Source: Arenibacter latericius DSM 15913
GTDB taxonomy: Bacteria > Bacteroidota > Bacteroidia > Flavobacteriales > Flavobacteriaceae
Reading direction: 5' to 3'
NCBI RefSeq assembly: GCF_000424985.1
Contig: NZ_AUKX01000016.1
Location: 1 to 64,000 of the forward strand
DNA length: 64,000 nt
The position numbers and the translations under genes are program-made. Shown here one piece after another: positions 11,497 through 56,352 of this stretch (positions are counted from its first letter, which is position 1; every line of letters begins with the position of its first letter). Below the pieces are notes generated by a model. The model searched no databases, was not told the DNA's origin, and was given only the letters and a program-made list of their open reading frames with translations.

Positions 11497-11983
11497 AGAT
11501 AGCTGGGGGGATTCCTTAGTTATGGGATCTTATTACATAGCTTTTTTTACTATTTGCCTTTTGCAGTTACTTGATAACGAGCGTCAAATTTTTACTATTG
11601 TACTAGATTATGAATTGATATCCCAACATTTTTTGTATCTTTTTAAATTGGAAAACGCGATTTACCTCGCTTTTCTATGTTTTATAAAGTTTTTTATGTG
11701 GTCTGTAGCTTAAGCTTCCCCTTACTTTTTCAGCGGACTTTTTTAGTTATGTTATTGGAATAATCTGAATTGATTTTCCATGTTCCCTCCTTAACTATTT
11801 TGTTTTTAAATAGTATTTTAATTTATTATAATCCTTACCAATTATATAGATACAAATTCTGTATGATTTTTAGGGTATAGTTTGCCTTATATCATTTGGT
11901 TCCGATTTGTAAACCATTTAGGAGTCAAGCTATTCTGGTAGGTTTTTAATCTATTTTGGAATGGTGCACTTTAAATGCAGTAA
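11497..11983. other. leader region upstream of the peptide-export cassette
   Basis: AT-rich intergenic DNA preceding the ABC exporter. A 63-codon plus frame (11522-11713) is hydrophobic and Phe/Cys-rich but has no family resemblance and is likely chance. No double-glycine peptide was found here. The exporter promoter is expected in the last 150 bases; no clear Bacteroidota TTTG/TAnnTTTG pair could be placed. Confidence 0.4.
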
Positions 11984-14158
11984 ATGTTTGAGACCATAAC
12001 ATTTCCGAATTATCGTCAGCTCGATCAAATGGATTGCGGTCCCACATGTCTAAAAATCATTGCTAAACATTACGGTAAAGATTTAAATCTAGAATATTTA
12101 AGAGAAATATCTTCTTTAACAAGTGGAGGAGTATCATTGGGTGCTTTATCCCAAGCTATGGATGTAATAGGTATAAGCTCAATTGGGATTAAATCCAATA
12201 TGGGTGAGCTAGTAAACGATATTCCTCTACCTGCTGTTGCTCATTGGGACAATAGTCATTTCCTAGTAGTTTATAAAACAACTAAGAGGTCTATTTATGT
12301 ATCAGATCCTGCAATAGGGTTGGTGAAATATAGGCATAATGAATTTATGGAAAAGTGGGCAGCTAAAAACGGAAAGGGTATTCTTTTGTTGGCGGAACCC
12401 ACCCGCATATTTAAGGAACTAGATGATGATGAGGGATCCAATGGTAATATGTCGTTTCTGTATAACTACTTGTTACCCTTCAAGGATTATATGGGGCAAT
12501 TATGTTTAGGACTTTTTCTTGCTGCTATCATTCAAATCTTACTTCCTTTTTTAACCCAGAGCCTTGTTGATTATGGTATAGACTATGAAGACCTCAATTT
12601 TATTCACCTAATAGTTATTGCTCAGGTTTTTCTTTTTTTAACACGTATTGCGTCAGAAGTTATACGGGATTGGTTACTAATGCACATGTCTACCCAAATT
12701 AATATTTCCATGATATCTGATTTCTTAGATAAATTACTGTTGTTACCTATTGCTTTTTTTGATTCCAAATCTACAGGGGATTTTATGCAACGGATTTATG
12801 ATCACCAACGCATAGAAGATTTTTTAGGCGGACGCTCACTATCTATTGCTTTCGATCTGTTTAGTATTTTAATATTTGCGGTGGTTCTAGGTTATTTCAG
12901 TACAGAAATTTTAATGATTTTTTTGATTGGGACTATATTTTTTATGGCGTGGACATTGCTTTTTTTAAAACGAAAAGCCTTTTTGGATCATCAGCTTTTT
13001 AATTTGAATCGTAAAGAACAATCCTTATTGCTTCAAATGATTAGTGCAATCCGAGAAATAAGATTAAATGGATCGGAACAACGTCGTAAAATAGAATGGA
13101 AGAAGGTTCAAATAAGTTTATATCGCCTAAAATCTACTTTTTTGCGTACAGATCAGATACAGTTAAAAGGAGGTTCTCTTTTTAATGAAATGACCAATAT
13201 ATTCATAATCTTTTGGTCTGCTAAAGCAGTAGTGTATGGTGATATTACGTTAGGTGCTATGTTAGCGATCCAATTCATTGTGGGAAGCCTTTCTGTTCCA
13301 ATTTCCAATATTTTGGATTTTATTGTCGGGTTACAACGTGCTGGACTTTCCTTAAAACGGCTCTCTGAAATACATTCTAAGGAACAGGAGGATAGCATAA
13401 ATGTTCAACCCAATGATATGGAGTTTGGGGATATCAAAATATCTAATTTAAATTTTAGATATGGAGAAATCACTAAAAACAATGTATTGGAAAACATTAA
13501 TATAATTATTCCTCAAAATAAGATTACCGCAATAGTTGGTCCTAGCGGTTCTGGAAAGACCACGTTATTAAAAATTCTACTAAAAATTTATACTCCCAAC
13601 AAGGGAAAAATAGTTTTAGGAAATGAGGAGTTAAAATATGTAAATGCCAAAATGTGGAGAGCGAGATGCGGCGTCGTTCTCCAAGATAGTGTGTTATTTA
13701 ATGATACCCTGGAACGAAATATAACAGAATCAAACTCTAATGAACCCACCAATAGGAACTGGTTAGGTGAGGCTGTGGAAATGGTGAATCTAACGGAGTT
13801 AGTTGATAGGCTTCCACTGGGCTACAATACAAGAATAGGGGAGTGGGGAAACATTCTTAGTGGGGGTGAAAAACAGCGATTATTGATCGCAAGAGCTATC
13901 TATAAAAATCCTCAGTACCTTTTCTTCGATGAAGCTACCAGTGCACTGGACGCTAAAAATGAATTGTCGATAACTCAAAAATTAATTTCCTTTTATTCTG
14001 GTAAAACCGTAATTAAAGTTGCTCATAGATTGTCCACTATCCGAAATGCAGATCAGATTATAGTGATGGATAAAGGTAAAATCGTTGAGCAAGGTAACCA
14101 TCAAGTTTTGGTGAATCATAAAGGACTTTATTATGACTTAATTTTAAACCAACTATAA
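11984..14158 (+). CDS. peptidase-containing ABC transporter (PCAT), C39 type
   Basis: The 724-residue protein is an inner-membrane exporter that cleaves double-glycine leader peptides and exports the mature part. Residues 1-130 are a C39 cysteine peptidase: Gln12 (oxyanion), Cys18 in QMDCGPTCL, His92 in NSHFLVV and Asp108 in VSDPAIG, so the catalytic set is complete. Residues 165-450 are the six-helix ABC membrane domain. The nucleotide-binding domain follows with Walker A GPSGSGKTTLL, signature LSGGEKQRL, Walker B YLFFDEATSALD and the H-loop KVAHRLSTI. The length is normal for PCATs. It is five bases upstream of an HlyD-type adaptor and shares a cassette with a double-glycine peptide at 17283, its likely substrate. 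An outer-membrane TolC-like partner is not in the window. Confidence 0.92.
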   Translation: MFETITFPNYRQLDQMDCGPTCLKIIAKHYGKDLNLEYLREISSLTSGGVSLGALSQAMDVIGISSIGIKSNMGELVNDIPLPAVAHWDNSHFLVVYKTTKRSIYVSDPAIGLVKYRHNEFMEKWAAKNGKGILLLAEPTRIFKELDDDEGSNGNMSFLYNYLLPFKDYMGQLCLGLFLAAIIQILLPFLTQSLVDYGIDYEDLNFIHLIVIAQVFLFLTRIASEVIRDWLLMHMSTQINISMISDFLDKLLLLPIAFFDSKSTGDFMQRIYDHQRIEDFLGGRSLSIAFDLFSILIFAVVLGYFSTEILMIFLIGTIFFMAWTLLFLKRKAFLDHQLFNLNRKEQSLLLQMISAIREIRLNGSEQRRKIEWKKVQISLYRLKSTFLRTDQIQLKGGSLFNEMTNIFIIFWSAKAVVYGDITLGAMLAIQFIVGSLSVPISNILDFIVGLQRAGLSLKRLSEIHSKEQEDSINVQPNDMEFGDIKISNLNFRYGEITKNNVLENINIIIPQNKITAIVGPSGSGKTTLLKILLKIYTPNKGKIVLGNEELKYVNAKMWRARCGVVLQDSVLFNDTLERNITESNSNEPTNRNWLGEAVEMVNLTELVDRLPLGYNTRIGEWGNILSGGEKQRLLIARAIYKNPQYLFFDEATSALDAKNELSITQKLISFYSGKTVIKVAHRLSTIRNADQIIVMDKGKIVEQGNHQVLVNHKGLYYDLILNQL

Positions 14159-14163
14159 GCGCA

Positions 14164-15459
14164 ATGAAAGACAAGGATATATGGCTTTATGATGAAAGCG
14201 CTTATATAAAAAGAAAACCAACATGGATGCTAAGATGGGGTGTGTTATTGTTATTTGGGTTTTTCGTTATGGTTTTGGTGTTTGCTTCATTTTTTAGTTA
14301 CAACGAGAATTTAAATGCTTCTCTGGTATTAACTACCGAAACTCCACCTGCACATATTATGTCTAAGCATACCGGTAGAATTCTAGATATTAATAATCTG
14401 CATAATGATACTGTTATTTCAGGAGATATTTTGGCGGTAATGGAAAGCACTGGAAACTTACAAGATATTATGTCACTAAAAAATAAGTTGACTTTAAATA
14501 CCACTTTACTATCGGATTTAACGATTCTCAATAAACACTACCCCAGTAATTTAGAATTGGGGAATAAGATTAGACCTATTTATAATGGGTTTTTAGATGC
14601 ATATAGAAACCTAATATTATATCATAATCTAAATGATAAAGAGTTAAAAGAAGTAGACTTAAAACGCCAATATGTAGGGAAGAATCTTACCATACAAAAT
14701 AAGAAGAATGAGATTTTAATACTTCAACGTAATCTTGAAATAAATAAAACTGATTATGATCGTTATGTGGAGTTGTTTGAAAAAGGTGTAGTGTCCTTAA
14801 AGGAATTGGAAAGAGTAGAGAAGGGGTATTTAAGTATTCAAAGACAATATTCCAATGTAACTAAAGAACTATACGAATTAAACACTGAACTTTTCAAGAT
14901 TAAGAATAATGATTTGTTATTTAAGAACTCTGGAATAAGAAATAAAAGTGTCCATGCTTCTACGTTAGAGTTTGAAAAGCAAAAGCTATTGGCGTTTTTA
15001 AAGGAGTGGGAAGAGATGTTCGTTCTAAAAAGCCCTATCTCTGGTCGCATTTCCTATTCCAACATTTGGGTAAAGAATCAAAATTTAAAGAAGGGACAAG
15101 TAATCTTCACAGTTGTTCCACTTGGAAATCAAAAACTCCTGGGAAGGTGCCGTGTGCCTATTCGTAACTCGGGTAAAATTAGGCATGGACAGCGTGTTAT
15201 TATAAAGCTAGATAATTACCCTTACCGGGAATGGGGCGCTCTCAATGGTACCGTAAAAACTATTTCAGAGGTTCCATATCCGGGAGATAATGGAGGTTAT
15301 GATGTTTTAGTAGAAGTTGAGGATCTAATTACTACCTATGGGAAAACATTAGTTTTTAAACAAGAAATGCAGGGGAATGCAAAAATTATACTAGCTAAAG
15401 TATCACTTTTAAAACGTGTATTTTATCAATTTCGGGAAATATGGGAATTTGAAGAGTAG
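14164..15459 (+). CDS. HlyD-family periplasmic adaptor (membrane fusion protein)
   Basis: This 431-residue protein has a short cytoplasmic N-terminus, one transmembrane helix (about residues 22-46), a first half of a lipoyl/barrel-sandwich domain (HIMSKHTGRILDINN), a long coiled-coil hairpin (about 150-270) and the second half of the sandwich (LKSPISGRISYSN), followed by a beta-barrel segment (PYREWGALNGTVKTISEVPY). This is the standard layout of type I secretion adaptors, which link an ABC exporter to an outer-membrane channel. It is translated with the PCAT (5-bp gap) and its stop overlaps the start of the next gene by one base, so the three genes form one operon. Confidence 0.88.
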   Translation: MKDKDIWLYDESAYIKRKPTWMLRWGVLLLFGFFVMVLVFASFFSYNENLNASLVLTTETPPAHIMSKHTGRILDINNLHNDTVISGDILAVMESTGNLQDIMSLKNKLTLNTTLLSDLTILNKHYPSNLELGNKIRPIYNGFLDAYRNLILYHNLNDKELKEVDLKRQYVGKNLTIQNKKNEILILQRNLEINKTDYDRYVELFEKGVVSLKELERVEKGYLSIQRQYSNVTKELYELNTELFKIKNNDLLFKNSGIRNKSVHASTLEFEKQKLLAFLKEWEEMFVLKSPISGRISYSNIWVKNQNLKKGQVIFTVVPLGNQKLLGRCRVPIRNSGKIRHGQRVIIKLDNYPYREWGALNGTVKTISEVPYPGDNGGYDVLVEVEDLITTYGKTLVFKQEMQGNAKIILAKVSLLKRVFYQFREIWEFEE

Positions 15460-17195
15460 TGGGATGTTATTCAATTAAATATCGCGTTAAGGCATTAAGG
15501 CTTATAATTAGGGCCTCATTTCTCTGTTTTGTAATAGTGAGCGGTGTTGCACAGAAAGTTGAACCTTCAACAGATAGTTTAAAATTTAATTTTGAAAAGT
15601 TCCTTCATCAAGATTATGAGTTTATAATGGACCAGGAGGATGAAGCATATGAGAGTAGCGATTATGATAAACTTAGAAAACTAACCGATATACATATCCA
15701 TAAAGCTAAGCTAGAGGACAATGCCTTAGAGATGGTTAATGGGTATTATTATAGAACAATCATTGAAGAGCCTATAATGGCTATTGCGTATTCGGACTCT
15801 ATCATTTCAGCGACTAAAGATAGTAATCACCCAGAGCACCCAACATTCGGCTATATTCTTAAGGCTATAATTTACTATGATATGGCTGATTATCAGCAAG
15901 CGTTAGAGAATTATATAGTTGCATATAATCTGGCCGTAGAAAAGAAGAATTTAACAGATCAATTTACGAGCTCTATGGCTATAGCTGCTATAAGAAATTT
16001 GAATGGGCAACCGCACGCAGCAGCAGATATTTACACCAGATCATTAAAGCTTTTGCAAAAGGAGAAAGATTATAAAAATAGATACGATAGGGATTATTTA
16101 ATGTTGATGTACAATCTTTCTCTTGCACATTTAAGGTTATCCCAATTGGATTCTTCACGTTACTATTTGAATAAAGGTATAAGTAAAGCTATTTCGGTAA
16201 ATGACACAGTAGAGTACCGTGATTTAGTATTAGTTGGTGCTCAGTTGGATTATTATGAAAATAAGTTTCAGAGCGCCAAGGATACCCTTATGAAATATAC
16301 CGATGAGTTAGAGGAGAATAGTAAAGCCACCAAGTATTATTATTTAGGTAAAATTGCTCAAAATTCCGGGGACAACTCTCTGGCCATTGACTACTTTAAG
16401 CAGATAGATTTAATTGTAGAGAAAACAAAAAGACCATTTGAAAATATTAAAGACGTTTATCAGCAATTGGTTTTGCATTATGGACTCCAAGGAGATCAGG
16501 AACGAGAAATAGAATCAATTGAAAAATTAATCTTTTATGATAGCTTAATTTCCACGGAAAATAAAGGGGTCATAAAACAGGCGATTGTTGCTTATGATAT
16601 TCCATATCTTAAATTTCAAAAAAAGAAAGTAGAGGAGGAGCTCAAATCTAAAAGTATATGGATACTAATTTTTGGTGTTATAGCAGGTATTGGTTTACTA
16701 ATAGCATTTTACTTCTACATAAGAGCTCGGAAAACTAAAATGAAAGTAAAACAAATGTTGGATGGCTCCATTCCATTTAAAAAATCCAACAGAGGGGTGG
16801 GAACTCATCCTGAGTCTGTACCTGAAGGGATTCGAAATGAATTGTTGATGAAATTAGAGGCATTTGAGAAGTCAGACCTCTATCTACAAAAAGATTTGGA
16901 TATGGCTCAGTTGGCCCAAGAGATGGATACTAATACTTCTTATTTATCAACTATTATTAATCACTATAAACAAAAGAGTTTTCCTAGATACATTAAAGAT
17001 TTAAAAATTACTAAAGCAATAGAAAGGCTTTCTAATGATCCAGATCTATTAAAATATAACTATCAAGGGTTAGCAGAAACTTTTGGATTTAAAACCGGAG
17101 AATCATTTTCAAAGGCATTCTATTCTCGGACTGGAGTATATCCTTCCAAATTATTAAAAGAACTAAAGAGTAGAGAGAATGCCCGTCATTTATAA
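15459..17195 (+). CDS. membrane TPR protein with cytoplasmic AraC-type DNA-binding domain
   Basis: The 578-residue protein starts with a GTG overlapping the previous stop. It has an N-terminal signal sequence (about residues 10-31), a helical TPR region (about 40-380, with repeats such as YILKAIIYYDMADYQQALEN), one transmembrane helix at about 400-421 (WILIFGVIAGIGLLIAFYFY) and an AraC/XylS helix-turn-helix domain at about 480-570 (LAQEMDTNTSYLSTIINHY; LAETFGFKTGESFSKAFYSR). The TPR part should therefore be periplasmic and the DNA-binding part cytoplasmic. Proteins of this layout are common one-component regulators in Bacteroidota. Being co-transcribed with a peptide exporter and next to its peptide, it is a candidate sensor of that peptide (inference). 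Its stop codon lies inside an 18-bp palindrome. Confidence 0.85.
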   Translation: MGCYSIKYRVKALRLIIRASFLCFVIVSGVAQKVEPSTDSLKFNFEKFLHQDYEFIMDQEDEAYESSDYDKLRKLTDIHIHKAKLEDNALEMVNGYYYRTIIEEPIMAIAYSDSIISATKDSNHPEHPTFGYILKAIIYYDMADYQQALENYIVAYNLAVEKKNLTDQFTSSMAIAAIRNLNGQPHAAADIYTRSLKLLQKEKDYKNRYDRDYLMLMYNLSLAHLRLSQLDSSRYYLNKGISKAISVNDTVEYRDLVLVGAQLDYYENKFQSAKDTLMKYTDELEENSKATKYYYLGKIAQNSGDNSLAIDYFKQIDLIVEKTKRPFENIKDVYQQLVLHYGLQGDQEREIESIEKLIFYDSLISTENKGVIKQAIVAYDIPYLKFQKKKVEEELKSKSIWILIFGVIAGIGLLIAFYFYIRARKTKMKVKQMLDGSIPFKKSNRGVGTHPESVPEGIRNELLMKLEAFEKSDLYLQKDLDMAQLAQEMDTNTSYLSTIINHYKQKSFPRYIKDLKITKAIERLSNDPDLLKYNYQGLAETFGFKTGESFSKAFYSRTGVYPSKLLKELKSRENARHL

Positions 17196-17201
17196 ATGAC
17201 G
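17184..17201. promoter_or_regulatory. 18-bp perfect palindrome, core ATTTATAAAT
   Basis: The sequence CGTCATTTATAAATGACG is a perfect inverted repeat that covers the stop codon of the TPR/AraC gene, about 80 bp before the peptide start codon. The same core recurs at 19691-19700 and 19711-19720. No run of T follows, so a terminator is unlikely; an operator or other protein-binding site is more plausible. Confidence 0.5.
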
Positions 17202-17282
17202 ACCTAATTGTCAATGGAGGTTTTAGTAATTAATGCTAAATTATACTATTAAGAATATCGCAAACCTTAAATAGATACGATC

Positions 17283-17411
17283 ATGAAGAAAAAAATGGAA
17301 GAGTTTAAAAGTAGAGCTTTAAAGGACCTGACCAAAATAAAAGGTGGAGGTGATGATGGACCCATAGATAGGGATAAGATAAAAAGGCCTAAACGGAGAC
17401 GTAGAGAATAA
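17283..17411 (+). CDS. double-glycine-leader peptide precursor, candidate PCAT substrate
   Basis: A 43-codon frame (ATG to TAA) encodes a 42-residue peptide: a charged amphipathic leader (FKSRALKDLTKIKGG, ending at Gly22) followed by a 20-residue core starting GDDGP and ending in RPKRRRRE. Leaders ending in hydrophobic-x-x-hydrophobic-x-Gly-Gly are the recognition sequence of C39 peptidases; here Leu16 and Ile19 precede Gly21-Gly22. The core is very basic and contains two prolines, with no cysteines, so it is not a classical lantibiotic or disulfide bacteriocin. It sits 88 bp after the TPR/AraC gene and 57 bp before a prolyl-oligopeptidase gene. It is too short for ordinary ORF calling. Whether it is a signal, a bacteriocin or a modified natural product is not known. 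Confidence 0.72.
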   Translation: MKKKMEEFKSRALKDLTKIKGGGDDGPIDRDKIKRPKRRRRE

Positions 17412-17468
17412 TCAGATTTATAAATTCAATCATTTGGAGTTAATTTTGATTAAATACGGATTATAATT

Positions 17469-19628
17469 ATGGTAAAAAACATAAGCTTAGTGTGTGGTGC
17501 ACTTATTACTCTTATGTCTTGTAATCATTATAAGACAGAAGAGGTGTGGACCTATCCAAAACTAGAACCTAGTCCTAAAACTATAGAATATTTCGGGACT
17601 AAGGTTTTAGATGATTACCATCAATTATCGAATTTACAAGATACAGCAGTTCAAGATTGGTTTAGTGCGCAAGATTCGTTGGCGGAAGCTTACTTTTTGA
17701 ATAATGGACTTTTAGAACAATATAGAGATCGTTTTTACGGCCTGCAAAACAGAATTGTAGGAGATTTTAGTATGGTGAGAGTCAGTGAATCAGGTAGTTA
17801 TTTCTATTTGAAATATGATGAGCTGAAAGAAGTTGATGTATTATTTTATAAGAAAAATTTTTCTGAGCAAGAGATGGAAATTTTTGATCCTTCTAAAAGG
17901 TACCCTGATAATCCAATCATTTCTTATCTAGAGCCTTCTTATGACGGAAAGAAGATAGCTATTGGCTTTGATTCTATGGGAGACTTTACTACAAAAGTGA
18001 TTATTTATGACTTAGAGGAGAAAACTATTTTAAAAGAAGAAATTTCCAATATTAATCCAGACTTTGGGGGAATTGAATGGTTGCCAGATAGTTCAGGGTT
18101 TATATATCTGTATTTTCCTAACATAGATCTAACAAAATCTAATTATAAGCAAAACTCCTATTCTGTAATCCATTTTCTAGGGGATAATCCCAATAGAAGA
18201 ACAGTGATATTTGGTAAGGAAGAATCCTATAAGATTCCTTCGGATTCTTATCCAAAAATAAAGACTGGTTCTAGTTTAGATAACTATATTGTTGCATATG
18301 CTGCAAAATCTGGAGATTTTTATGATAGTTTTATAGCTAATACTATTGATGTCCTTTCAGGTATTCCCAATTGGAAACCTTTTTTTACTACTACCGATAA
18401 GATATATTATAATCAAGGCGAAATTAGAGGTAAGCACTTTATTTACAGAAGGGCTACTCCCGATGGAAATGAAATTTGCCTAGTTGATATCGAGGATGCT
18501 AACTTTTCTAATCCATTGATTCTGGCGAAAGGAAGTCGGGATAACCCCATAACTAAATTTGAGGTAACTAAGGATTACATATACTTTGTAAAAGAAAAAT
18601 ATGGAGTTGAAATATCATTATTTAAAATTGATGAAAATGATATTGAGGGTCAGCTTACTCTTCCATTTGTTCCTGGTTATGCTTCCTTTTTTGGGGAGTC
18701 TATAACGCATAATGATATTGGTTTGGGTTTGGATGGTTGGACTTCTGATTATGTAAGATATTGTATTGACTCTATAGGTAATATAGCTAAGGAGGGCTTA
18801 TATAAAACAGCATCAATTCCCGACTATGAAAATTTAGTCTATAAGCAAGTAATGGTTGTTTCTCATGATGGAGAAGAAGTGCCACTTTCTTTAATTTATC
18901 GAAATGATTTGGAGTTGGACTCCAATAATGAGGTTTTTATAAATGTTTACGGCGCTTATGGTGTAAGTATGAATCCCTTTTTTTCTCCTATATTTTTGGA
19001 TTGGGTAGAACAAGGGGGGATACTCGCTTTCCCACATGTACGAGGGGGAGGGGAAAAAGGAAGGGAATGGCACCTGCAAGGAATGAAGGGTATGAAAAGT
19101 AATTCATGGAAAGATCTCATCTCTTGTACAGAATACCTTATTGAAAACGGATATGCTAAAAAAGGATTATTGTCCTTATATACCAATAGTGCGGGGGGAA
19201 TTACTGGAGGAATGGCTGTTAATGAACGTCCAGAACTATTTTCTTCCTTTATAGCTGAGGTGCCTAGAATGCACCCGTTGGGCCTTGAATCCTCGACTAG
19301 TAGTAGCAGTACTAGCTATATGGAATATGGTACAGTAAAAGATAGTCTAGAATTTCTTGGACTTTTAAAGATGGACCCCTATTTAAATCTTAAATCAGAT
19401 ACCGAATATCCAGCGACTTTATTAATGCCTAGCAGCAGTGATGATCGTATCCCTCTATGGGATAGCGCAAAATATATTGCTAAACTTCAGGCTAACAACA
19501 CTGCTAATACTCCTGTTTTAATGGATATAGATTATGATTCTGGACATGAGAACTCAGCGGGTTACGACGCGGAGATTGAAATCTATGCACGTATCTTTAG
19601 CTTCGCAAAAACGAATATGCAGCACTAG
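17469..19628 (+). CDS. prolyl-oligopeptidase family (S9) serine peptidase, probable lipoprotein
   Basis: The 719-residue protein has a lipoprotein-type signal (LMSCN, lipid-attached Cys about residue 18), an N-terminal POP segment (YFGTKVLDDYHQL), a beta-propeller (about 80-430) and a C-terminal alpha/beta-hydrolase. The probable triad is Ser574 (YTNSAGG), Asp658/659 (SDDRIPLW) and His693 (SGHEN). The region GGGEKGREWH also matches the family. The usual GGSxGG around the nucleophile reads TNSAGG, a variation that may alter activity. POPs cut after proline in peptides shorter than about 30 residues, because the propeller filters substrate size. Immediate proximity to a 20-residue Pro-containing exported peptide suggests the enzyme matures, inactivates or clears it; this is inference. 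Confidence 0.85.
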   Translation: MVKNISLVCGALITLMSCNHYKTEEVWTYPKLEPSPKTIEYFGTKVLDDYHQLSNLQDTAVQDWFSAQDSLAEAYFLNNGLLEQYRDRFYGLQNRIVGDFSMVRVSESGSYFYLKYDELKEVDVLFYKKNFSEQEMEIFDPSKRYPDNPIISYLEPSYDGKKIAIGFDSMGDFTTKVIIYDLEEKTILKEEISNINPDFGGIEWLPDSSGFIYLYFPNIDLTKSNYKQNSYSVIHFLGDNPNRRTVIFGKEESYKIPSDSYPKIKTGSSLDNYIVAYAAKSGDFYDSFIANTIDVLSGIPNWKPFFTTTDKIYYNQGEIRGKHFIYRRATPDGNEICLVDIEDANFSNPLILAKGSRDNPITKFEVTKDYIYFVKEKYGVEISLFKIDENDIEGQLTLPFVPGYASFFGESITHNDIGLGLDGWTSDYVRYCIDSIGNIAKEGLYKTASIPDYENLVYKQVMVVSHDGEEVPLSLIYRNDLELDSNNEVFINVYGAYGVSMNPFFSPIFLDWVEQGGILAFPHVRGGGEKGREWHLQGMKGMKSNSWKDLISCTEYLIENGYAKKGLLSLYTNSAGGITGGMAVNERPELFSSFIAEVPRMHPLGLESSTSSSSTSYMEYGTVKDSLEFLGLLKMDPYLNLKSDTEYPATLLMPSSSDDRIPLWDSAKYIAKLQANNTANTPVLMDIDYDSGHENSAGYDAEIEIYARIFSFAKTNMQH

Positions 19629-19687: not shown

Positions 19688-19723
19688 GTCATTTATAAAT
19701 AGCCCCCTTCATTTATAAATGAC
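19688..19723. promoter_or_regulatory. tandem palindromes with the ATTTATAAAT core
   Basis: Two further copies of the element at 17184 lie 60-95 bp after the peptidase stop and about 110-140 bp before rteC: GTCATTTATAAAT at 19688 and TCATTTATAAATGA at 19709. The cores start exactly 20 bp apart, about two helical turns, as expected for cooperative binding of a dimeric regulator. Together with the copy before the peptide gene they bracket the peptide-peptidase pair. Which protein binds is unknown; the TPR/AraC protein or RteC are candidates. Confidence 0.45.
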
Positions 19724-19827
19724 TTCCTATCAGATTTTTTATTCTTTCCTTTTCTATTGATATTTAGAATGACAACAAAAATGGATGGTTTTAAATAGAA
19801 TAAAGCGGTTCATTGGAAAGAAAGAAA

Positions 19828-20643
19828 ATGAATTGGTTATTATCACATGAAAAAATTGAATCAGAATTAATTCAGATAGAGCAATCGTTCCTAAATACCA
19901 TTGTAGCTTACAACAATGCCATTTCTTATTGTCAACGTATTTTGGAGCAATATCGCTCAAAAGTTGTATCTAAGGGTTTTCCTGATGAAGCATCTGAAAT
20001 TAAATTTTTTAAAAAAGAAAAACCATTTCTTTTTGGACAACTTTTACGGTATATACATCAATTGAATTTTGAACTTGAATATGCGAAAATTGCTTATGAT
20101 GCTAACGAGAGGATTATTCCCCAAAAGATTCTAGAAGTAAACACCTACCTGTTCAATCATAGAGACATAGTGCTATATGTCGAACTTGGAAATGATAGTT
20201 TAGATCAACAGTATTTTTTACGAAAAAATAGGGGATTTTGTATTTCTCCCAGTTCTAATGGATTTAGTTTTGACCCAGACTTTAGTTCCTCCCATGATGT
20301 GCTTCTAGCTAATATATTTGGTTACCAGGGATTTCTTCAATTTTTACAACAGAAATTAGGTTCTGCTAGTCTCAATCCAGATTTTACCATTCCTCAAATT
20401 AACTGGACAAAATCTAAGACTGCCCTTATCGAATTAGGGTTCGCCTTGTTCTATAGCGGTGTTATAAATCATGGAAATGCTAGTTTGAAATCTATAATGC
20501 AATTTTTGGAAGAGGTAACAGGGATGGATCTGGGAAATTATCATCATACCGCAATCCGGATCAGAAACCGTTCCAACCCCACAAAATTCATGGATAAACT
20601 TAGAGATTCCTTACAGGATTGGGTGGCCGATCTAGACGATTAA
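19828..20643 (+). CDS. rteC: RteC-family regulator of conjugative element excision/transfer
   Basis: A protein of about 271 residues with the pattern of RteC of CTnDOT: helical N-terminus, central GNDSLDQQYFLRKN block, FDPDFSSSHDVLLANIFGYQ, and the C-terminal INWTKSKTALIELGFALFYS, INHGNASLKSIMQFLEEVTG, DLGNYHHTAIRIRNRSNPTK region. RteC activates excision genes in Bacteroides conjugative transposons. The ATG at 19828 is preferred over an upstream TTG because it follows a purine-rich stretch and the conserved helices start there. It opens the plus-strand transfer block and is preceded by two palindromes. Its target genes (xis/exc, integrase) are not in the window. Confidence 0.8.
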   Translation: MNWLLSHEKIESELIQIEQSFLNTIVAYNNAISYCQRILEQYRSKVVSKGFPDEASEIKFFKKEKPFLFGQLLRYIHQLNFELEYAKIAYDANERIIPQKILEVNTYLFNHRDIVLYVELGNDSLDQQYFLRKNRGFCISPSSNGFSFDPDFSSSHDVLLANIFGYQGFLQFLQQKLGSASLNPDFTIPQINWTKSKTALIELGFALFYSGVINHGNASLKSIMQFLEEVTGMDLGNYHHTAIRIRNRSNPTKFMDKLRDSLQDWVADLDD

Positions 20644-20877: not shown

Positions 20878-21549
20878 ATGAATTATATTAGACATTTAAA
20901 TTCCATTTTAGCCCTGTTCACAAAGGATCAAAGATTGAATCCTACTCACATTAGTACTTATATCGCTTTGTTCCAACTGTGGAATATTAATCGTTTTACA
21001 GATACTTTCTATTTGAACCGAGAGGAAGTAATGCGCATAGCAAAGGTAGGCTCAAAGAACACTTATCATCGCTGTCTTAAGGAATTGGATCATTGGAAAT
21101 ATATCCGGTATTTACCATCTCATAATCCGTACAAAGGAAGTCGGGTACACATGCTCAATTTTGATATATCTAGTGGTGCTAGTTCTGAGTCAACTAATGG
21201 TGCAGGTGGAGACCAAGTAATGGGACAAGCATTAGTACCTTTTATAAACAGTAATAAACAAAATAAAAACATTAATAAACTTAAGCTACCCAAAAGTGAA
21301 AATGAAGTTTTAATTTTTTTTAAAAAAGAAAAATGGCCTGTTATAGAAGGGAAAAAGTTTTATAACCATTACACTTCAATAAGTTGGAAATTGGGAGGAA
21401 AAATCATGATAGAGGATTGGCACTCTACCGCCAGGAATTGGATGTTAAAAGCCGATGAAATAAATAAAGAAAATGTGGTTAATGGACCATCCCAAAAACG
21501 AGACAACCTAAAAGTATCTAAAAATAAGGATTATGGACAACCCCTCTAA
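20878..21549 (+). CDS. winged-helix replication-type protein (DnaD/initiator-like) of the conjugative element
   Basis: The 223-residue protein has an N-terminal winged-helix-like domain (HISTYIALFQLWNINRF; REEVMRIAKVGSKNTYHRCL; YIRYLPSHNPYKGSR), a low-complexity Ser/Asn linker and a C-terminal segment (FFKKEKWPVIEGKKFYNHYT; IEDWHSTARNWMLKA) that resembles the DnaD/replisome-organiser C-terminus found in phage and plasmid initiators. Its 3' end overlaps the next gene, a DnaC-like ATPase, by 17 bases. A DnaD-like plus DnaC-like pair suggests element-encoded helicase loading, i.e. autonomous or rolling replication of the excised element. Function is inferred from fold pattern and pairing. Confidence 0.6.
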   Translation: MNYIRHLNSILALFTKDQRLNPTHISTYIALFQLWNINRFTDTFYLNREEVMRIAKVGSKNTYHRCLKELDHWKYIRYLPSHNPYKGSRVHMLNFDISSGASSESTNGAGGDQVMGQALVPFINSNKQNKNINKLKLPKSENEVLIFFKKEKWPVIEGKKFYNHYTSISWKLGGKIMIEDWHSTARNWMLKADEINKENVVNGPSQKRDNLKVSKNKDYGQPL

Positions 21550-22195
21550 AATAATTGAGAATGGTATTGAATATTCCCTTGGGATATTTGACGGTCATGA
21601 GGTGTTATATGATTTTGATAAGATTCTTATCTACCTGAACGCGAAAGGGAAACTGCTTTTTGGAAATCAGTTTAAAATTTACGACCAAGACCGAGACATC
21701 GTATTTAAACTCTGCAATTACTTTATCAAAGATAGGGTGTATTGCGAAAAAGAGCATATTGATATTCAAAAGGGAGTGATGCTGACTGGCCCTGTGGGCT
21801 GTGGTAAGACAAGTTTGATGAAGCTGATACGCCATATTGTCCCAATGCAACGTCCATACGTGGTAATCCCCTCAAGAAATATAACCTTCAGTTTTAATCA
21901 TTTAGGCTATAAAACCATTGAGGACTTTGGGAACAGTAAATCCTACTGTTTTGATGACCTAGGTATAGAACCAATGGGTCGCTATTATGGCCATGACTGC
22001 AACGTATTGGGCGAAGTGCTTCTCTCCCGATATGAATTGTTCCTACAAACTAAGGGCAAGGTAAAGACCTATGCCACTACCAACTTGAATGCAGGGGAAT
22101 TGGAAGAACTTTACGGGAATCGTGTCCGCAGCCGTATGCGCGACCTTTTTAACCTGATCGCATTTGATAAGAAAACAAACGATAAACGTAAGTAA
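21533..22195 (+). CDS. DnaC-like AAA+ ATPase (helicase-loader type)
   Basis: The 220-residue protein has a Walker A motif GPVGCGKTSLMKLI (about residue 85), Walker B CFDDLGIEP (about 142) followed by a sensor-type segment KVKTYATTNLNAGELEELYG and an arginine-rich RVRSRMRDLFNLIAF end, as in DnaC/IstB-type loaders. It lacks an obvious IS21 partner, so IstB is unlikely. It overlaps the winged-helix gene upstream and is followed two bases later by an EEP nuclease gene, so the three are translationally linked. Likely role: loading a replicative helicase onto element DNA. Confidence 0.75.
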   Translation: MDNPSKIIENGIEYSLGIFDGHEVLYDFDKILIYLNAKGKLLFGNQFKIYDQDRDIVFKLCNYFIKDRVYCEKEHIDIQKGVMLTGPVGCGKTSLMKLIRHIVPMQRPYVVIPSRNITFSFNHLGYKTIEDFGNSKSYCFDDLGIEPMGRYYGHDCNVLGEVLLSRYELFLQTKGKVKTYATTNLNAGELEELYGNRVRSRMRDLFNLIAFDKKTNDKRK

Positions 22196-24346: not shown

Positions 24347-24634
24347 ATGAAAAAATCACTTTATATGTTAACGGTAATACTGCTCATGATAACTCCCGCT
24401 TTTGGACAGATCGGTGGAATCGAAGATTCTGTAAACGATGTTTCGGATACCATTAGAACCATCTTCCCAATAATTCTAGGAGTAATTTTTCTAGTTGGAT
24501 TTTTATTTAATGCAGGGCATTTCTTTGGGGAGAATTCCGATCTCAAAAAGGGAATTACTCGTGTACTTGTCTTTGTACTAATTGCGGGAGCAGTTGTAGG
24601 AATATTTACTTACCTGATCACGATTGTAGTTTAA
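24347..24634 (+). CDS. traE: TraE-like conjugation protein (DUF4134, pilin/VirB2-like position)
   Basis: A 95-residue protein with a signal peptide ending in FGQ (about residue 21) followed by a short soluble part and two transmembrane helices (about 40-60 and 70-93, FPIILGVIFLVGFLFNAGHF and the Val-rich C-terminus). Size, order and hydrophobicity match TraE of Bacteroides conjugative transposons, the small VirB2-like subunit. It is the first gene of the plus-strand tra operon and is followed by TraF-like and TraG-like genes in the canonical order. Confidence 0.75.
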   Translation: MKKSLYMLTVILLMITPAFGQIGGIEDSVNDVSDTIRTIFPIILGVIFLVGFLFNAGHFFGENSDLKKGITRVLVFVLIAGAVVGIFTYLITIVV

Positions 24635-24668
24635 AAAATCTGGATGTTAGAATTTTATCAAAAGAAGT

Positions 24669-24953
24669 ATGAAAAAATTTGAAGTGTATAGAAACATAAG
24701 AAAACGGGCAGTCATATTTGGTCTTCCAATATCACTATTTGCCTTAATTATAGTTTCTATAGTGGTATCGCTAATGGTCATTATTTTTTCTTTCAGTTTA
24801 GGGTTGATTGTAGGTGCTGTGATTTTTAATATCCTTCTATACATCACCTTGATCCGTGTGGCCAATAATTTTCGGTTTCAGCCAATTATAAAAATATTCC
24901 CAGATATCATTAGTAATAAAAGAAACTCCGGTATTGATTATGAAGAAGATTAA
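24669..24953 (+). CDS. traF: TraF-like conjugation protein (DUF4133, VirB3-like)
   Basis: This 94-residue protein begins with a charged segment (KKFEVYRNIRKRAVIFGLPI) and has a long hydrophobic stretch that forms two transmembrane helices (about 17-65), then a short cytoplasmic tail ending in DYEED. This is the layout of TraF/VirB3, the inner-membrane partner of the VirB4 ATPase. Its last 14 bases overlap the start of the TraG-type ATPase gene, indicating translational coupling. Confidence 0.75.
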   Translation: MKKFEVYRNIRKRAVIFGLPISLFALIIVSIVVSLMVIIFSFSLGLIVGAVIFNILLYITLIRVANNFRFQPIIKIFPDIISNKRNSGIDYEED

Positions 24954-27342
24954 CCTGTCAGCATATCGCCCTATTATAGATATTCAGGATAATATCATCT
25001 TTGCCAATAATGGTAATGTGTTGTTGTGCTATGAGGGATTATTGCCAGAGATTCACTCTCTTTCAGAAAAAGATTATGAGGATATACATGGAGAATGGTT
25101 CCAAGCACTAAAATCTCTTCCTACAGGATGTGTTATACACAAACAGGATATTTATCTTAAAAAACTATATTCTTCTAATAAACTGCCTAAAAGTACCTTC
25201 CTAGAAAAAGTAACCCATGATTATTTTAAGGGGCGTGAATATATTGAGCATCGTTGTCTTTTATTTTTTACGCTAACTAAGAATAGAGCTTTAAACAATC
25301 CAAAGTATGTAAATCCTTTCCGAAAAATTTCCAAGGACTTGGTACAACAGTTGGATGATCAAGCAAGTGGTTTTATTGCTGCGGTTAGAGATTCAATTTC
25401 TTATATCAATAATAGTCGAAAAATGGAATTCATTTCACTTAAACCTAATGAGATACAAGACTTAACCACCGATTATTTTAATGGTTTCAGTGAAGGATTT
25501 GATACTGATATAATCCTGGATAAATCACATATTAATATTGGTGAAAACTACTTTGATGTATTGGCCGTAAATAACGAGCTCTGCTTCAATGAAAATGTGC
25601 AGAGCAGTAAGAACAATGAGCAGTACACTTCCAATGAATTTGTATTCCACCAAGGTTTTATCGATGGTCTTGGTTTGACCCTGAATGAAAATCATATCGT
25701 GAACCAGATTCTCTACCTGGACGATAAGCAGAAATGGCGAAAGTTGCTGGATTACAAAATTGAGGAGTTGAACAAAAGCTCCAATTTTGGTTCCCAGAAC
25801 AAGGTTGTTCTTGGGAAAATCCAGCATATTTTGGAACAGATTAATTCAGATGATAGTTCACGGGTAATCCGTGGCCATTTGAACATTATCTTTTGGGCCA
25901 AGGAGGCTAGGGAATTGAGAAAAATAACTTCCAAGGTAAAAACAGCGTTTAAGGAACTGGATATCTTTCCTTATTATCCAAGGGGGGAGGAACGCAAAAA
26001 TTACATACTGAACAGCTACTGTTGCTTTTCGTCCAATTTTTCCAATTCCGATCTATATGTAACAGATTTGAAACATGCGCTCTGTCTGTTTTTAAATAGC
26101 ACTAATTATAAATCTGATGAAACAGGAATTATCTTTAACGACCGATCTTATAATATTCCGGTAATTAAAGATGTCTGGGATGACCATAAAGTGCGTATCA
26201 AGGCACGAAACTTTGCCATATTTGCTCCTACAGGTGAGGGGAAATCGTTCTTGGCAAATAATATCCTGCGTCAATATTTTGAAAGTGGGGTCCGTTTGGT
26301 CATCATTGATTTAGGTGGTTCTTACACAAAATTTGCCAAGTTGTATCCTGGTAAGTATACAATCCTGCGATATGAGAGCGGGAAGAGTTTAGGTATTAAC
26401 CCCTTTTACATTAGCGATAAAAAGGACCTTTTGCCAGAACATTTGGAGGATTTGTCGGTGTTTCTTTTTGAACTCTTCGGGGCTGACAGGAAGGTTACGA
26501 AGGCACAATCGGTTTCGGTCAAAAAGATATTGATATATTATTATAATACTCTTTCTGAGGGTCACTCTTTAGATAGTTTCTATTGTTTTATCGAGGATAA
26601 CAAGCACGAACTCTTGGGTAAGTTAAATATCCATCCAGATTATTTTAACGTTAATAATTTCCTTCACATCATGTCCGAATATGTGGGTAATGGGCTCTAT
26701 AGCTTCCTTTTTGAAATGAGCGAGGACCAATCCTACAAAATAGAAGATAAGCGTTTAATCGTGTTTGAACTGGACGAGGTGAGGGACAATAAGGAGATCC
26801 TATCCGTAATGTTAAAGCTGATTAAGACGGCCATACAGCGTACGATTTGGAAAAATCGTTCCGAAAAAGGGATTATTCTTTTTGATGAGTTTGCTAAACA
26901 ATTGAAGTTCGACAACGTACTGGAAAGTGTAGAGTTCTATTATCAGGCAATACGAAAGCAGAATGGTGCTATCGGTATAATTCTGCAGACTATCAATCAG
27001 CTTCCGAACAACTCAATCTCTGCTAGTCTATTGGAAAACACCCAAGTCATTTATAGTCTAAATAATGAGAAAGGGTATGATGACTTGGTTAAACGGCTTA
27101 ATCTAACCGACCACGACCTGAACCAGTTAAAGTCAATAAAGAACAATTTTACGGGACCTCGCAAATACACAGAAATGTTTATCAAGATAGGGAAGGAGAG
27201 TAACATATTTCGCCTCGAGGTTCCTAAAGAAGTATATGCCGCCTATCTCACTGATGGGTTGGAGAATGATGAAATAATGCAGTTATACGAGCAGCATCAA
27301 GATATGGAAAAAGCAATTATTGAATACACTTCTAAAACCTAA
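24940..27342 (+). CDS. traG: TraG-family conjugation ATPase (VirB4-like)
   Basis: With the ATG at 24940 the protein is 800 residues long, typical for CTnDOT-type TraG. The N-terminal half is the VirB4 TraG-N region; the C-terminal half has a P-loop APTGEGKSFLANNILRQYF (about residue 430), a RecA-fold segment LVIIDLGGSYTKFAKLYPGK and a Walker B GIILFDEFAKQL. VirB4 ATPases energise pilus assembly and substrate transfer from the inner membrane. It overlaps traF by 14 bases and is followed five bases later by the TraI-like gene. Nothing suggests loss of function. Confidence 0.88.
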   Translation: MKKINLSAYRPIIDIQDNIIFANNGNVLLCYEGLLPEIHSLSEKDYEDIHGEWFQALKSLPTGCVIHKQDIYLKKLYSSNKLPKSTFLEKVTHDYFKGREYIEHRCLLFFTLTKNRALNNPKYVNPFRKISKDLVQQLDDQASGFIAAVRDSISYINNSRKMEFISLKPNEIQDLTTDYFNGFSEGFDTDIILDKSHINIGENYFDVLAVNNELCFNENVQSSKNNEQYTSNEFVFHQGFIDGLGLTLNENHIVNQILYLDDKQKWRKLLDYKIEELNKSSNFGSQNKVVLGKIQHILEQINSDDSSRVIRGHLNIIFWAKEARELRKITSKVKTAFKELDIFPYYPRGEERKNYILNSYCCFSSNFSNSDLYVTDLKHALCLFLNSTNYKSDETGIIFNDRSYNIPVIKDVWDDHKVRIKARNFAIFAPTGEGKSFLANNILRQYFESGVRLVIIDLGGSYTKFAKLYPGKYTILRYESGKSLGINPFYISDKKDLLPEHLEDLSVFLFELFGADRKVTKAQSVSVKKILIYYYNTLSEGHSLDSFYCFIEDNKHELLGKLNIHPDYFNVNNFLHIMSEYVGNGLYSFLFEMSEDQSYKIEDKRLIVFELDEVRDNKEILSVMLKLIKTAIQRTIWKNRSEKGIILFDEFAKQLKFDNVLESVEFYYQAIRKQNGAIGIILQTINQLPNNSISASLLENTQVIYSLNNEKGYDDLVKRLNLTDHDLNQLKSIKNNFTGPRKYTEMFIKIGKESNIFRLEVPKEVYAAYLTDGLENDEIMQLYEQHQDMEKAIIEYTSKT

Positions 27343-27346
27343 GATA

Positions 27347-27919
27347 ATGAGAAAAACTCTGGTACTATTCACATTGGCATTAATACTATTTGGCTTTAAT
27401 ACAACTGCCCAGGGCTTGCCCGTTTATGACAACACTAATTTCATCAGTTTGGTAAAACAGCTATTGGAATCTGGTAAGCAGACGGCCAACCTTCTTAAGA
27501 CCGTCAATTTTTTAAAGGAACAAAAAGAGAATTTGGAGAAGGTAAATAGTGTAGTTCGGCAATTGAAAGCGGTTCGGGAAATCGGTAGGAATAACCAACG
27601 TCTTATAAATGTGATGCAAAACGACCTAAGGGACATTCTAAATTCCCCCTATATCAAACCAGGTGAAGTATCAAGGGTAACGGAGTCTTTTAACAGTATT
27701 GTCAAAAACTCCTTGGTGACCATGGATTTCATAGAGCAAATCCTATCAAATGATTATTTAAAAATGAGCGATTCCGAACGAACTGAAATTCTCAAAGAAA
27801 TGGAAGTGCAGTCTAAAGTAATGGTAACAGACATTCACTACAAAACCAAACGCTATAATGACATCATATCATTTAGGACTATGCAGGATAAAGTAAATAA
27901 CAGGAGAACCAATTATTAG
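27347..27919 (+). CDS. traI: TraI-like secreted conjugation protein (DUF4141, VirB5-like position)
   Basis: The ATG at 27347 (not the codons upstream, which lie inside traG) gives a 190-residue protein with a clean signal peptide ending NTTAQG. The rest is almost entirely helical, with a coiled coil over about residues 35-80 (LLKTVNFLKEQKENLEKVNS) and a conserved-looking end YKTKRYNDIISFRTMQDKVN. Position between the VirB4 ATPase and the TraJ membrane protein and the size fit TraI of Bacteroidota conjugative transposons. A periplasmic, channel-associated role is expected from the family. Confidence 0.7.
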   Translation: MRKTLVLFTLALILFGFNTTAQGLPVYDNTNFISLVKQLLESGKQTANLLKTVNFLKEQKENLEKVNSVVRQLKAVREIGRNNQRLINVMQNDLRDILNSPYIKPGEVSRVTESFNSIVKNSLVTMDFIEQILSNDYLKMSDSERTEILKEMEVQSKVMVTDIHYKTKRYNDIISFRTMQDKVNNRRTNY

Positions 27920-27922
27920 GCT

Positions 27923-28762
27923 ATGAACTCAAATATTATTTTAGGGATAGGGTTGGAGTACATAGACGCCGTCTTCCAAACCATACAGAACAGTGATTTT
28001 TCGCAGTATACAATTGCAGGGATAAAAGTACTTGCCGTGTTATTCTTTTTAATAAATATCCTTAAAAAATATAATGAAGGTATCGCGGACAGGTACGGCT
28101 ATACTTGGGGGTTGAGCCCAGGAGAACTGGCCAAGAATTTTGCAGTGGTAATCTTAGTTATTTTTTCTACTCAGATACTTGGTTTTTTCGATGGGATTTT
28201 AACCGCAGTAGAAAGTCAATACCGAAATACTGCTCCAGCGTTATTACCCTTACAAATGCAAGATTTCCCCCTTGAAGAGGACATAAATCTTTTAGATTCA
28301 GCAAAGATGGCTATGGTTCTATTATATGAAGCTTTGATTACACCGATGTATAGCTTTAGAATACTCGCTTTTGTCATAAGCCTATTTCTTTGGATTTTAG
28401 ATTTATTTATCTATCCCCTATTTCTTGCAGAGCGTTATTTTCTATTGGGAATAATGCAAGCATTTTTCCCTTTGGTCATCAGTTTGGCCGTGTTTGAAAA
28501 GTTCCGATCCATGGCATACAACTTTTTTAAGTTATATGCTGCAGTCTACATGTTGGTCCCAGCTTTCTTTTTGGTCAATGTATTTATTAACGCAATCTAT
28601 ACGGAGATCAATACCACTTTTTGGGTTAACCTCTTTGGGACCAATCTAGGCAACTCTTTATTTGCCCCAGTGGTGGATTTGGGGTCCATTGGTTTTATCG
28701 TATTTCTCAAGTTTAAACTGTACAAACGTGCTACTTCGTTCACATTAAGATTATTCACCTAA
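27923..28762 (+). CDS. traJ: TraJ-like polytopic inner-membrane protein (VirB6-like)
   Basis: A 279-residue protein with at least five transmembrane segments, for example IAGIKVLAVLFFLINILKKY, AKNFAVVILVIFSTQILGFF, FRILAFVISLFLWILDLFIY and YAAVYMLVPAFFLVNVFINA, plus a short basic C-terminus. VirB6-type proteins form part of the inner-membrane DNA channel. The gene is three bases after traI and its stop overlaps the start of traK by one base, so it belongs to the same operon. It is somewhat shorter than CTnDOT TraJ. Confidence 0.75.
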   Translation: MNSNIILGIGLEYIDAVFQTIQNSDFSQYTIAGIKVLAVLFFLINILKKYNEGIADRYGYTWGLSPGELAKNFAVVILVIFSTQILGFFDGILTAVESQYRNTAPALLPLQMQDFPLEEDINLLDSAKMAMVLLYEALITPMYSFRILAFVISLFLWILDLFIYPLFLAERYFLLGIMQAFFPLVISLAVFEKFRSMAYNFFKLYAAVYMLVPAFFLVNVFINAIYTEINTTFWVNLFGTNLGNSLFAPVVDLGSIGFIVFLKFKLYKRATSFTLRLFT

Positions 28763-29376: not shown

Positions 29377-29400
29377 TGACACATATCAAAACCACTAGAA

Positions 29401-30330: not shown

Positions 30331-30359
30331 TATTGGAGGGGCATTTAAAATCTAATCTC

Positions 30360-55291: not shown

Positions 55292-55304
55292 TATTTCTAT
55301 TTAA

Positions 55305-56351: not shown

Positions 56352-56352
56352 T

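What the first reader, a model, noticed from the sequence alone, without database searches (positions are those of the whole stretch)
11984..19628. Peptide export-sensing-processing cassette: PCAT, HlyD, TPR/AraC, double-glycine peptide, prolyl oligopeptidase
Seen: an intact C39 exporter and adaptor, a membrane TPR regulator with AraC output, a hidden 42-residue double-glycine peptide, and a lipoprotein S9 peptidase, all on one strand within 7.7 kb. Known: PCATs cleave GG leaders; POP enzymes cut after proline in short peptides; TPR domains bind peptides in Gram-positive quorum systems. Inferred: the 20-residue core is exported, sensed by the periplasmic TPR domain and cleaved or cleared by the peptidase, making a Gram-negative peptide-signal circuit or a self-limiting bacteriocin.
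Basis: partly seen in the sequence, partly recalled or inferred. Interest (0 to 1): 0.85.

Follow-up and report, generated by a model that had tools for sequence, protein, structure and literature searches.

The report
Peptide-signal circuit on conjugative elements
A mobile DNA element in a marine bacterium carries a complete set of genes for making, exporting and sensing a tiny peptide, and shared DNA switch sites connect that set to the gene that should turn on the element's own transfer, so these elements may talk to each other before they jump.

Summary
In detail: C39 exporter, HlyD adaptor, periplasmic TPR–membrane–AraC regulator, 42-aa GG peptide and S9 peptidase lie on one strand at 11984–19628. 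Of 80 exporter loci fetched, 19 carry regulator and S9 in this order; all 19 have the GG peptide between them and rteC behind. Six divergent systems (regulator 29–36% identical) keep a GPIDRDK-like core although leaders differ. A palindrome, TCATTTATAAATGA, precedes the peptide gene (20 of 20), rteC (19 of 20; a second copy 20–21 bp away in 14) and the exporter operon (16 of 19, weaker; degenerate in the window). It is absent before rteC in 12 of 12 scored elements without the cassette. Two elements that lost peptide, exporter and peptidase keep regulator, rteC and boxes. Best reading: an autoinducing peptide circuit that gates conjugation through RteC. Shown: gene content, conservation, shared promoter sites. 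Inferred: peptide–TPR binding, activation, transfer control. Post-proline cleavage is not supported; the bacteriocin reading is weak. The main steps can be tested by gene deletion, a reporter and a synthetic 20-mer.

The parts
11903..11916 (+). degenerate copy of the operator box at the expected distance before the exporter gene
   Evidence: read by eye; 9 of 14 matches only, no better than another 9-of-14 place in the same stretch; 16 of 19 measured cassettes have at least 11 of 14 at about -80 to -85
11984..14158 (+). PCAT: C39 peptidase-ABC exporter
   Evidence: Pfam PF03412, PF00664, PF00005
14164..15459 (+). HlyD-type periplasmic adaptor
   Evidence: Pfam PF13437; type_I_hlyD below its cut-off
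15459..17195 (+). signal peptide - periplasmic TPR superhelix - TM helix (about 401-421) - cytoplasmic AraC HTH regulator
   Evidence: AF2 model pLDDT 79; alignment A2; signal peptide and topology read from the sequence, not predicted by a program
17186..17199 (+). operator box TCATTTATAAATGA before the peptide gene (overlaps the end of the regulator gene)
17283..17348 (+). GG leader (22 aa) of the signal peptide precursor
   Evidence: alignments A1, A5
17349..17411 (+). core GDDGPIDRDKIKRPKRRRRE and stop
17469..19628 (+). S9 family peptidase with lipoprotein-like signal
   Evidence: Pfam; alignment A3; PDB sequence search
19689..19702 (+). operator box, distal copy before rteC (12 of 14)
19709..19722 (+). 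operator box, proximal copy before rteC (14 of 14), 20 bp from the distal copy
19813..20643 (+). RteC, family of the CTnDOT transfer/excision activator
   Evidence: Pfam PF09357 2.8e-46; follows S9 in 19 of 19 relatives
20878..22195 (+). two genes that follow rteC in relatives (223 aa; AAA ATPase, weakly DnaI-like)
   Evidence: NCBIfam matches far below their cut-offs
24347..31211 (+). conjugation genes TraE, F, G, I, J, K, M, N of the element (letters E, F, I, J, K given by order only)
   Evidence: Pfam for TraG PF19044, TraM PF12508, DUF4138; order conserved in relatives
53720..56402 (-). coupling protein (TraG/TraD type) and DUF5712 protein, taken as the relaxase by place only
   Evidence: on the same contig near the cassette in G002-G006

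Best explanation
An element-encoded autoinducing peptide circuit that controls conjugative transfer in Flavobacteriaceae. The precursor is cut after GG and exported by PCAT/HlyD (inferred from families). The core, conserved as (D)GPIDRDKIKRPK, is sensed in the periplasm by the TPR domain of the membrane-spanning AraC regulator (inferred). The regulator, probably as a dimer, binds the palindrome TCATTTATAAATGA just upstream of three promoters (the shared boxes are shown, the binding is inferred): peptide gene, exporter-adaptor-regulator operon (positive feedback) and rteC (often paired boxes). RteC then switches on transfer, as reported for CTnDOT (inferred by homology). The S9 peptidase shares the compartment with the peptide and probably removes or trims it, which sets the threshold and resets the circuit (inferred).
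For: PCAT-HlyD-TPR/AraC-peptide-S9-rteC in 19 of 80 exporter loci; all 19 with regulator and S9 have peptide and rteC. TraG, or coupling protein plus DUF5712, on the same contig in 18 of 21 cassettes incl. the window. Tyrosine integrase about 290-560 nt upstream of PCAT in 8 of the 21 loci of this type. Boxes: peptide 20/20 and rteC 19/20 at >=12 of 14, PCAT 16/19 at >=11; random windows of the same loci reach >=12 in 178 of 4000; before rteC of cassette-less elements 0 of 12 reach 12. In the 4.48-Mb genome the exact 13-mer occurs at three places: peptide promoter, rteC promoter, and inside a 1087-aa ORF. A -7-like TAnnTT element 33-39 nt after the box in 19 of 21 peptide, 12 of 12 PCAT and 10 of 17 rteC rows, against 1863 of 10000 letter shuffles. 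Divergent systems keep core and, in 5 of 6, a box at 11-13 of 14. Elements without peptide, exporter and S9 keep regulator, boxes and rteC. The TPR model resembles peptide-binding TPRs.
Against: No experiment shows that the peptide is made, secreted or bound. In the window itself the PCAT box is degenerate (9 of 14). Single-mismatch boxes are common: 45 matches of the 13-mer with up to one mismatch in the genome against 16 for the reversed pattern; those elsewhere were not examined. 11 of 14, the score of G236 and G372, is reached by 388 of 4000 random windows. 7 of 17 rteC rows lack the -7-like element at the expected offset. That the TPR-AraC protein and not RteC binds the box is inferred. 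The Foldseek match is generic for TPR (Rap-pheromone complexes at ranks 38, 46 and 50). No box at the peptide of G163, and G163 and G372 have no transfer genes in the 50-80 kb read, so the circuit is not always about conjugation. Direction (activation or repression) is deduced from promoter geometry only.
Confidence: 0.6

Rival explanations
1. Same circuit, opposite sign: the peptide reports that neighbours already carry the element and shuts transfer down (ICEBs1 PhrI logic, recalled), with the S9 enzyme relieving the block.
For: Genes and operators are the same for either sign. Elements that lost peptide, exporter and peptidase keep regulator, boxes and rteC, as expected if the regulator can work without ligand.
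Against: Boxes lie upstream of the likely promoter elements, including the peptide's own, the place of an activator, which suggests positive feedback.
Confidence: 0.2
2. An element-borne bacteriocin with regulated production, like bacteroidetocin B on a 96-kb ICE; the operator at rteC only coordinates killing with transfer.
For: PCAT plus a mostly cationic GG peptide on an ICE; bacteroidetocin B is on an ICE (PMC6671954, passages seen).
Against: 0 of 20 aligned cores has Cys; no immunity-like gene or thiol oxidoreductase in the conserved unit; a 16-24-aa core with a conserved GPIDRDK half and a linked sensor looks like a ligand.
Confidence: 0.12
3. The boxes are RteC sites: RteC autoregulates and feeds back on the peptide operon, and the TPR-AraC regulator acts elsewhere.
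For: A palindromic site suits a symmetric dimer; rteC follows S9 in all 19 relatives. The RteC tree does not exclude one origin of cassette RteCs. That CTnDOT RteC binds inverted repeats is recalled, not read.
Against: RteC homologues of 12 scored cassette-less elements have no box at 12 or more of 14. Divergent cassettes have boxes although their RteCs group with the box-less ones (91/95, not starred). G372 has box-like sites (11 of 14) before regulator and peptide with no rteC match in the 80 kb read.
Confidence: 0.18
4. The peptide is an envelope or export reporter sensed by the same cell (private autocrine check), not a signal between cells.
For: Signal, exporter and sensor would sit in one cell's periplasm; nothing shows that the core crosses the outer membrane.
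Against: None tested here: no outer-membrane partner was sought. HlyD-type adaptors normally dock on a TolC-like duct (recalled).
Confidence: 0.2

Closest known systems
Peptide-pheromone control of conjugation in Gram-positives (pCF10, ICEBs1 Rap-Phr; recalled)
   Same: element-encoded short peptide, element-encoded receptor, presumed output on transfer genes; TPR receptors in Rap
   Different: Gram-negative host; GG leader and C39 exporter; periplasmic TPR joined through a TM helix to an AraC HTH, no import; RteC as presumed output; S9 peptidase
CTnDOT regulation (rteA, rteB, RteC under tetracycline; PMC10865816, passages seen)
   Same: RteC family protein with Bacteroidota tra genes
   Different: a peptide cassette lies directly before rteC
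Bacteroidetocins (PMC6671954, passages seen)
   Same: GG peptide and C39 ABC exporter, once on an ICE
   Different: core without Cys, no thiol oxidoreductase or multi-TM protein in the unit; own sensor and S9 enzyme
ComC/ComAB competence peptides of streptococci (recalled)
   Same: GG leader, C39 exporter, extracytoplasmic sensing, positive feedback
   Different: one-component membrane TPR-AraC sensor, not a histidine kinase; output on an ICE
Prolyl oligopeptidase / oligopeptidase B (S9A)
   Same: Pfam domains and PDB sequence matches, triad residues invariant in the alignment
   Different: exported; neither the POP Trp nor the OpB Glu pair in S1 (recalled motifs), Ser616 invariant instead

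Membership tests
Peptidase-containing ABC transporter (PCAT) | C39 peptidase + ABC membrane + ABC ATPase in one chain | tested here: met
Peptidase-containing ABC transporter (PCAT) | cleaves after GG of a linked precursor | not testable with these tools
   linked GG precursor present in 19 of 19 relatives with regulator and S9; cleavage not shown
Pheromone-controlled conjugative elements | peptide, exporter and receptor encoded on the element | tested here: met
   element ends were not mapped
Pheromone-controlled conjugative elements | receptor controls transfer genes in response to the peptide | not testable with these tools
   shared operator before rteC is indirect support
CTnDOT-type elements | RteC-family protein and tra genes | tested here: met
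CTnDOT-type elements | RteA/RteB two-component pair feeding rteC | tested here: inconclusive
   the genes directly before rteC are the peptide cassette; response regulators at 39263-40795 (for the LytTR one) were not compared with RteA/RteB
Bacteroidetocins | core with at least two Cys | tested here: not met
   0 of 20 aligned cores
Bacteroidetocins | linked TM protein and usually thiol oxidoreductase | tested here: not met
   neither among the genes from 11984 to 20643
Prolyl oligopeptidase | Ser-Asp-His triad in an S9 fold | tested here: met
   S574, D658/D659, H693 invariant in 17 of 17 aligned (L009, L012 and the frameshifted L015 were left out); which Asp is catalytic is recalled; fold not modelled
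Prolyl oligopeptidase | S1 Trp that stacks on proline (porcine Trp595, recalled) | tested here: not met
   Ser616 invariant in 17 of 17 aligned (register judged by eye)
Oligopeptidase B | S1 Glu-x-Glu (recalled) | tested here: not met
   Ser616-x-Met/Leu/Ile618 (register judged by eye)

The most novel reading that the evidence does not exclude
Flavobacterial conjugative elements carry exchangeable sensing modules in a slot beside rteC. One type is the first Gram-negative ribosomal-peptide pheromone system for conjugation, with a GPIDRDK-core peptide family read by periplasmic TPR-AraC receptors. Elements that kept only the receptor may listen in on the signal of others.
Probability: 0.4. Interest if true: 0.92.

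Novelty: new variant of a known kind. Interest (0 to 1): 0.82.

Why it matters
How Bacteroidota elements decide when to transfer is known mainly for the tetracycline switch of CTnDOT (recalled; PMC10865816 passages). A peptide pheromone in this phylum would move a mechanism thought of as Gram-positive into Gram-negatives, give a new receptor type (periplasmic TPR joined through the membrane to an AraC HTH), and make transfer of these elements testable with a synthetic 20-mer and a reporter.

Tried and rejected
Bacteriocin: kept only as a rival (no Cys, no immunity-like gene). Post-proline cleavage of the core: rejected as a general rule (L059 peptides without Pro; S1 Trp absent). Box as terminator of the upstream gene: rejected, since the distance to the downstream start is nearly constant, it is repeated before rteC, and it lacks a G+C stem. 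The profile missed the peptides of G236 and G372, so it does not exclude further divergent ones. Profile A5 hit 7 of 395 genomes of the class; apart from the window none reaches past position 28 of 39. Plasmids: no match of the regulator at 1e-20 in 72,556 records. RteC tree: one origin of cassette RteCs cannot be excluded and long branches meet, so it is weak evidence on who binds the box. L236 (G018:C46): PCAT-HlyD-TPR/AraC beside tra genes but no GG peptide in the about 400 nt read behind it. TPR-AraC paralogues without S9 in the other loci read have no peptide of this family (for L202 only 342 nt lay behind the gene). Literature: searches listed no report of a peptide circuit on Bacteroidota elements; I saw listings only, and passages of two papers; the library holds open-access papers only.
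Full report
WHAT IS THERE. The unit does not end there. The next gene, 19813-20643, is RteC (PF09357, 2.8e-46), followed by a 223-aa protein, a weakly DnaI-like ATPase, and from 24347 the conjugation genes of a Bacteroidota element (TraG PF19044, TraM PF12508, DUF4138/TraN). A coupling protein and a DUF5712 protein lie at 53720-56402. The window is contig 15 of a 4.48-Mb assembly; its nearest relative among the fetched loci is Arenibacter certesii (95% in PCAT).

CONSERVATION OF THE CASSETTE. A search with PCAT kept the best 80 of 319 confirmed loci. Of these 80, 19 carry regulator and S9 behind PCAT-HlyD on the same strand, two more (L019, L021) are cut by contig ends, and the remaining 59 have the exporter without this set. 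In all 19 the gap between regulator and peptidase holds a homologous GG peptide (L059 has two), and in all 19 rteC follows S9. Genera by record title: Arenibacter, Christiangramia/Gramella, Gillisia, Salegentibacter, Cerina and one Flavobacteriaceae MAG. A further complete cassette was found in G392. The peptide is under purifying selection (pN/pS 0.23 leader, 0.24 for nine core codons; 12 sequences, uncorrected and near saturation).

THE CORE IS KEPT, THE LEADER IS NOT. A regulator search of 397 family genomes found 22 with a match at 1e-60. I read 20-40 kb at 17 sites of these and the short flanks of the others. In six the regulator (29-36% identical) is followed by an S9 gene: G129, G341, G340, G163, G236, G372. 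All six have a GG peptide in that gap (for G340 I count from an internal Met); leaders differ strongly, cores read DGPIDRDKIR, NGPIDRDKIK, GGPIIDKDKIR, KGPIRRDKLK, LGPIDKRKLN and DDPVDKDKTR. Loci of such regulators without S9 had no peptide of this family. Four of the six lie beside tra genes; for G163 and G372 no tra gene appeared in the 50-80 kb read.

IT BELONGS TO A CONJUGATIVE ELEMENT. Of 21 main-type cassettes (19 relatives, G392, window), 16 have TraG on the same contig within about 60 kb. In G007 that TraG stands behind a second, cassette-less rteC and may belong to another element, and in several (G003, G005, G006, G017) TraG is on the other strand. Two (G002, G004) have coupling protein and DUF5712 near the cassette, and G018 has SSB and the rteC-linked genes on a 17-kb contig. 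G010's contig ends about 1 kb behind rteC. G012, a 2.4-Mb MAG with no TraG match at all, ends 3.8 kb behind rteC and was not read further. A tyrosine integrase lies about 290-560 nt upstream of PCAT in L011, L012, L013, L015 and L018-L021 and directly upstream of the regulator in two reduced elements (four integrase queries; for L011 a 28% partial match). None was found upstream in the window itself. The ends of the element were not mapped.

SHARED OPERATOR. TCATTTATAAATGA lies before the peptide gene in 20 of 20 (at least 12 of 14 matches, start at -88 to -100; L059 counted from an internal Met), before rteC in 19 of 20, and before PCAT in 16 of 19 at 11 or more, at -80 to -85 (the window, L005 and L059 have only 9 before PCAT). 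Random 259-nt windows of the same loci reach 12 or more in 178 of 4000 and 11 or more in 388, real boxes included. Before rteC a second copy (10-13 of 14) lies 20-21 bp away in 14 of 20, 16 bp in two, and not so in four. A -7-like TAnnTT element lies 33-39 nt behind the box in 19 of 21 peptide rows, 12 of 12 PCAT rows and 10 of 17 rteC rows, against 1863 of 10000 letter shuffles (three rows below 11 of 14 were dropped: window PCAT, L005 PCAT, L027 rteC). In the whole own genome the exact 13-mer is found at three places: the peptide promoter, the rteC promoter, and inside a 1087-aa ORF. With one mismatch it has 45 matches (16 for the reversed pattern), so loose copies elsewhere are common and were not examined.

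WHO READS THE BOX. Of 20 stretches of other TraG copies in the same genomes, 13 show rteC without the regulator; 12 of these could be scored and none reaches 12 of 14 before rteC (best 8-11; L237 had too little upstream sequence). Two elements (G231; G005 contig 28) lost peptide, exporter and S9 but keep regulator, paired boxes and rteC; G231 has no PCAT match at 1e-80 in its genome. Divergent cassettes have a box (13, 13, 12, 11 and 11 of 14 at the peptide; G163 none) although their RteCs group with box-less RteCs (91/95, not a starred branch; long branches, so weak). G372 has box-like sites before regulator and peptide with no rteC match in 80 kb.

RECEPTOR. The AF2 model (18 sequences, pLDDT 79.1, pTM 0.53) shows helical repeats 45-378, a long helix 382-434 and an HTH region. 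Foldseek's best hits are peptide-bound LGN TPR domains (4wnd, 6e-7); Rap-pheromone complexes come at ranks 38, 46 and 50. This is a fold-level hint only. Residues H79, E103, N180, D255, Y266 and Y294 are conserved in 18 or 19 of 20 cassette-type receptors and in 1 to 4 of 15 other TPR-AraC proteins; the 20 are not independent and include G231, which has no peptide.

PEPTIDASE. The S9 enzyme matches prolyl endopeptidases best and oligopeptidase B next; in NCBIfam only oligopeptidase B shows, far below its cut-off. Triad residues are invariant in 17 aligned enzymes, but the position of the POP S1 Trp (recalled numbering, register by eye) is an invariant Ser, and the OpB Glu pair is absent. Two peptides (L059) contain no Pro. 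Its substrate is therefore open; its co-occurrence with the peptide in every locus read suggests the peptide.

VERDICT. Shown: the cassette, its conservation, its place on the element, the shared box. Inferred: export, binding, activation, transfer control. Known RteC function is from CTnDOT (PMC10865816, passages only). Bacteroidetocin B shows that GG peptides ride on ICEs as toxins (PMC6671954, passages only), but the features here differ. I rate this a new variant of peptide-controlled conjugation, in a phylum and with a receptor where my searches listed none.

Noticed in passing
L231, L232, L235, L240, L241, L244 (elements without the cassette): Directly upstream of rteC lies a ~805-aa protein (in L244 the frame is split) with a divergent ~300-aa and a ~125-aa gene. 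Pfam of the L232 set: aminotransferase class I/II + GNAT, AraC HTH/PAS, DUF7793. A different sensing module in the same slot?
   Followed up: partly
L225, L228, L229: Another set upstream of rteC: ~160-aa and ~305-aa genes; Pfam of the L225 pair: asparaginase N-terminal domain, and a hydrophobic protein with LuxR-type HTH.
   Followed up: partly
L205 (G231) and L230 (G005:C28): Receiver-only elements: regulator, paired boxes and rteC without peptide, exporter or S9; G005 also carries a full cassette on contig 22.
   Followed up: yes
L221 and L223 (G307): Other TPR-AraC genes followed by unrelated GG-leader ORFs (53 and 73 aa) 100-125 nt downstream: the sensor type may serve more peptide families.
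   Followed up: no
L216 (G096): Seven TPR-AraC matches in a row on one strand.
   Followed up: no
L048, L051-L053, L055, L056, L058 (Kordia): Exporter-adaptor pairs with one or two TPR-AraC genes on the opposite strand, no S9 match.
   Followed up: no
window 35344-37892, - strand: AriA/OLD-like ATPase beside a resolvase, between the tra genes and the coupling protein: possible defence cargo.
   Followed up: partly
window 40070-51161: Likely cargo block: LytTR response regulator, DUF1573, DUF4838, TPR/YaiO, glycosyltransferase, HEAT and AAA proteins.
   Followed up: no
window 4205-8818, - strand: 1537-aa multi-PAS/GAF protein.
   Followed up: no
L015 S9 gene, L024 regulator gene, G013:C44 TraG: Frameshifted or interrupted copies; real decay or sequencing error not decided.
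   Followed up: no
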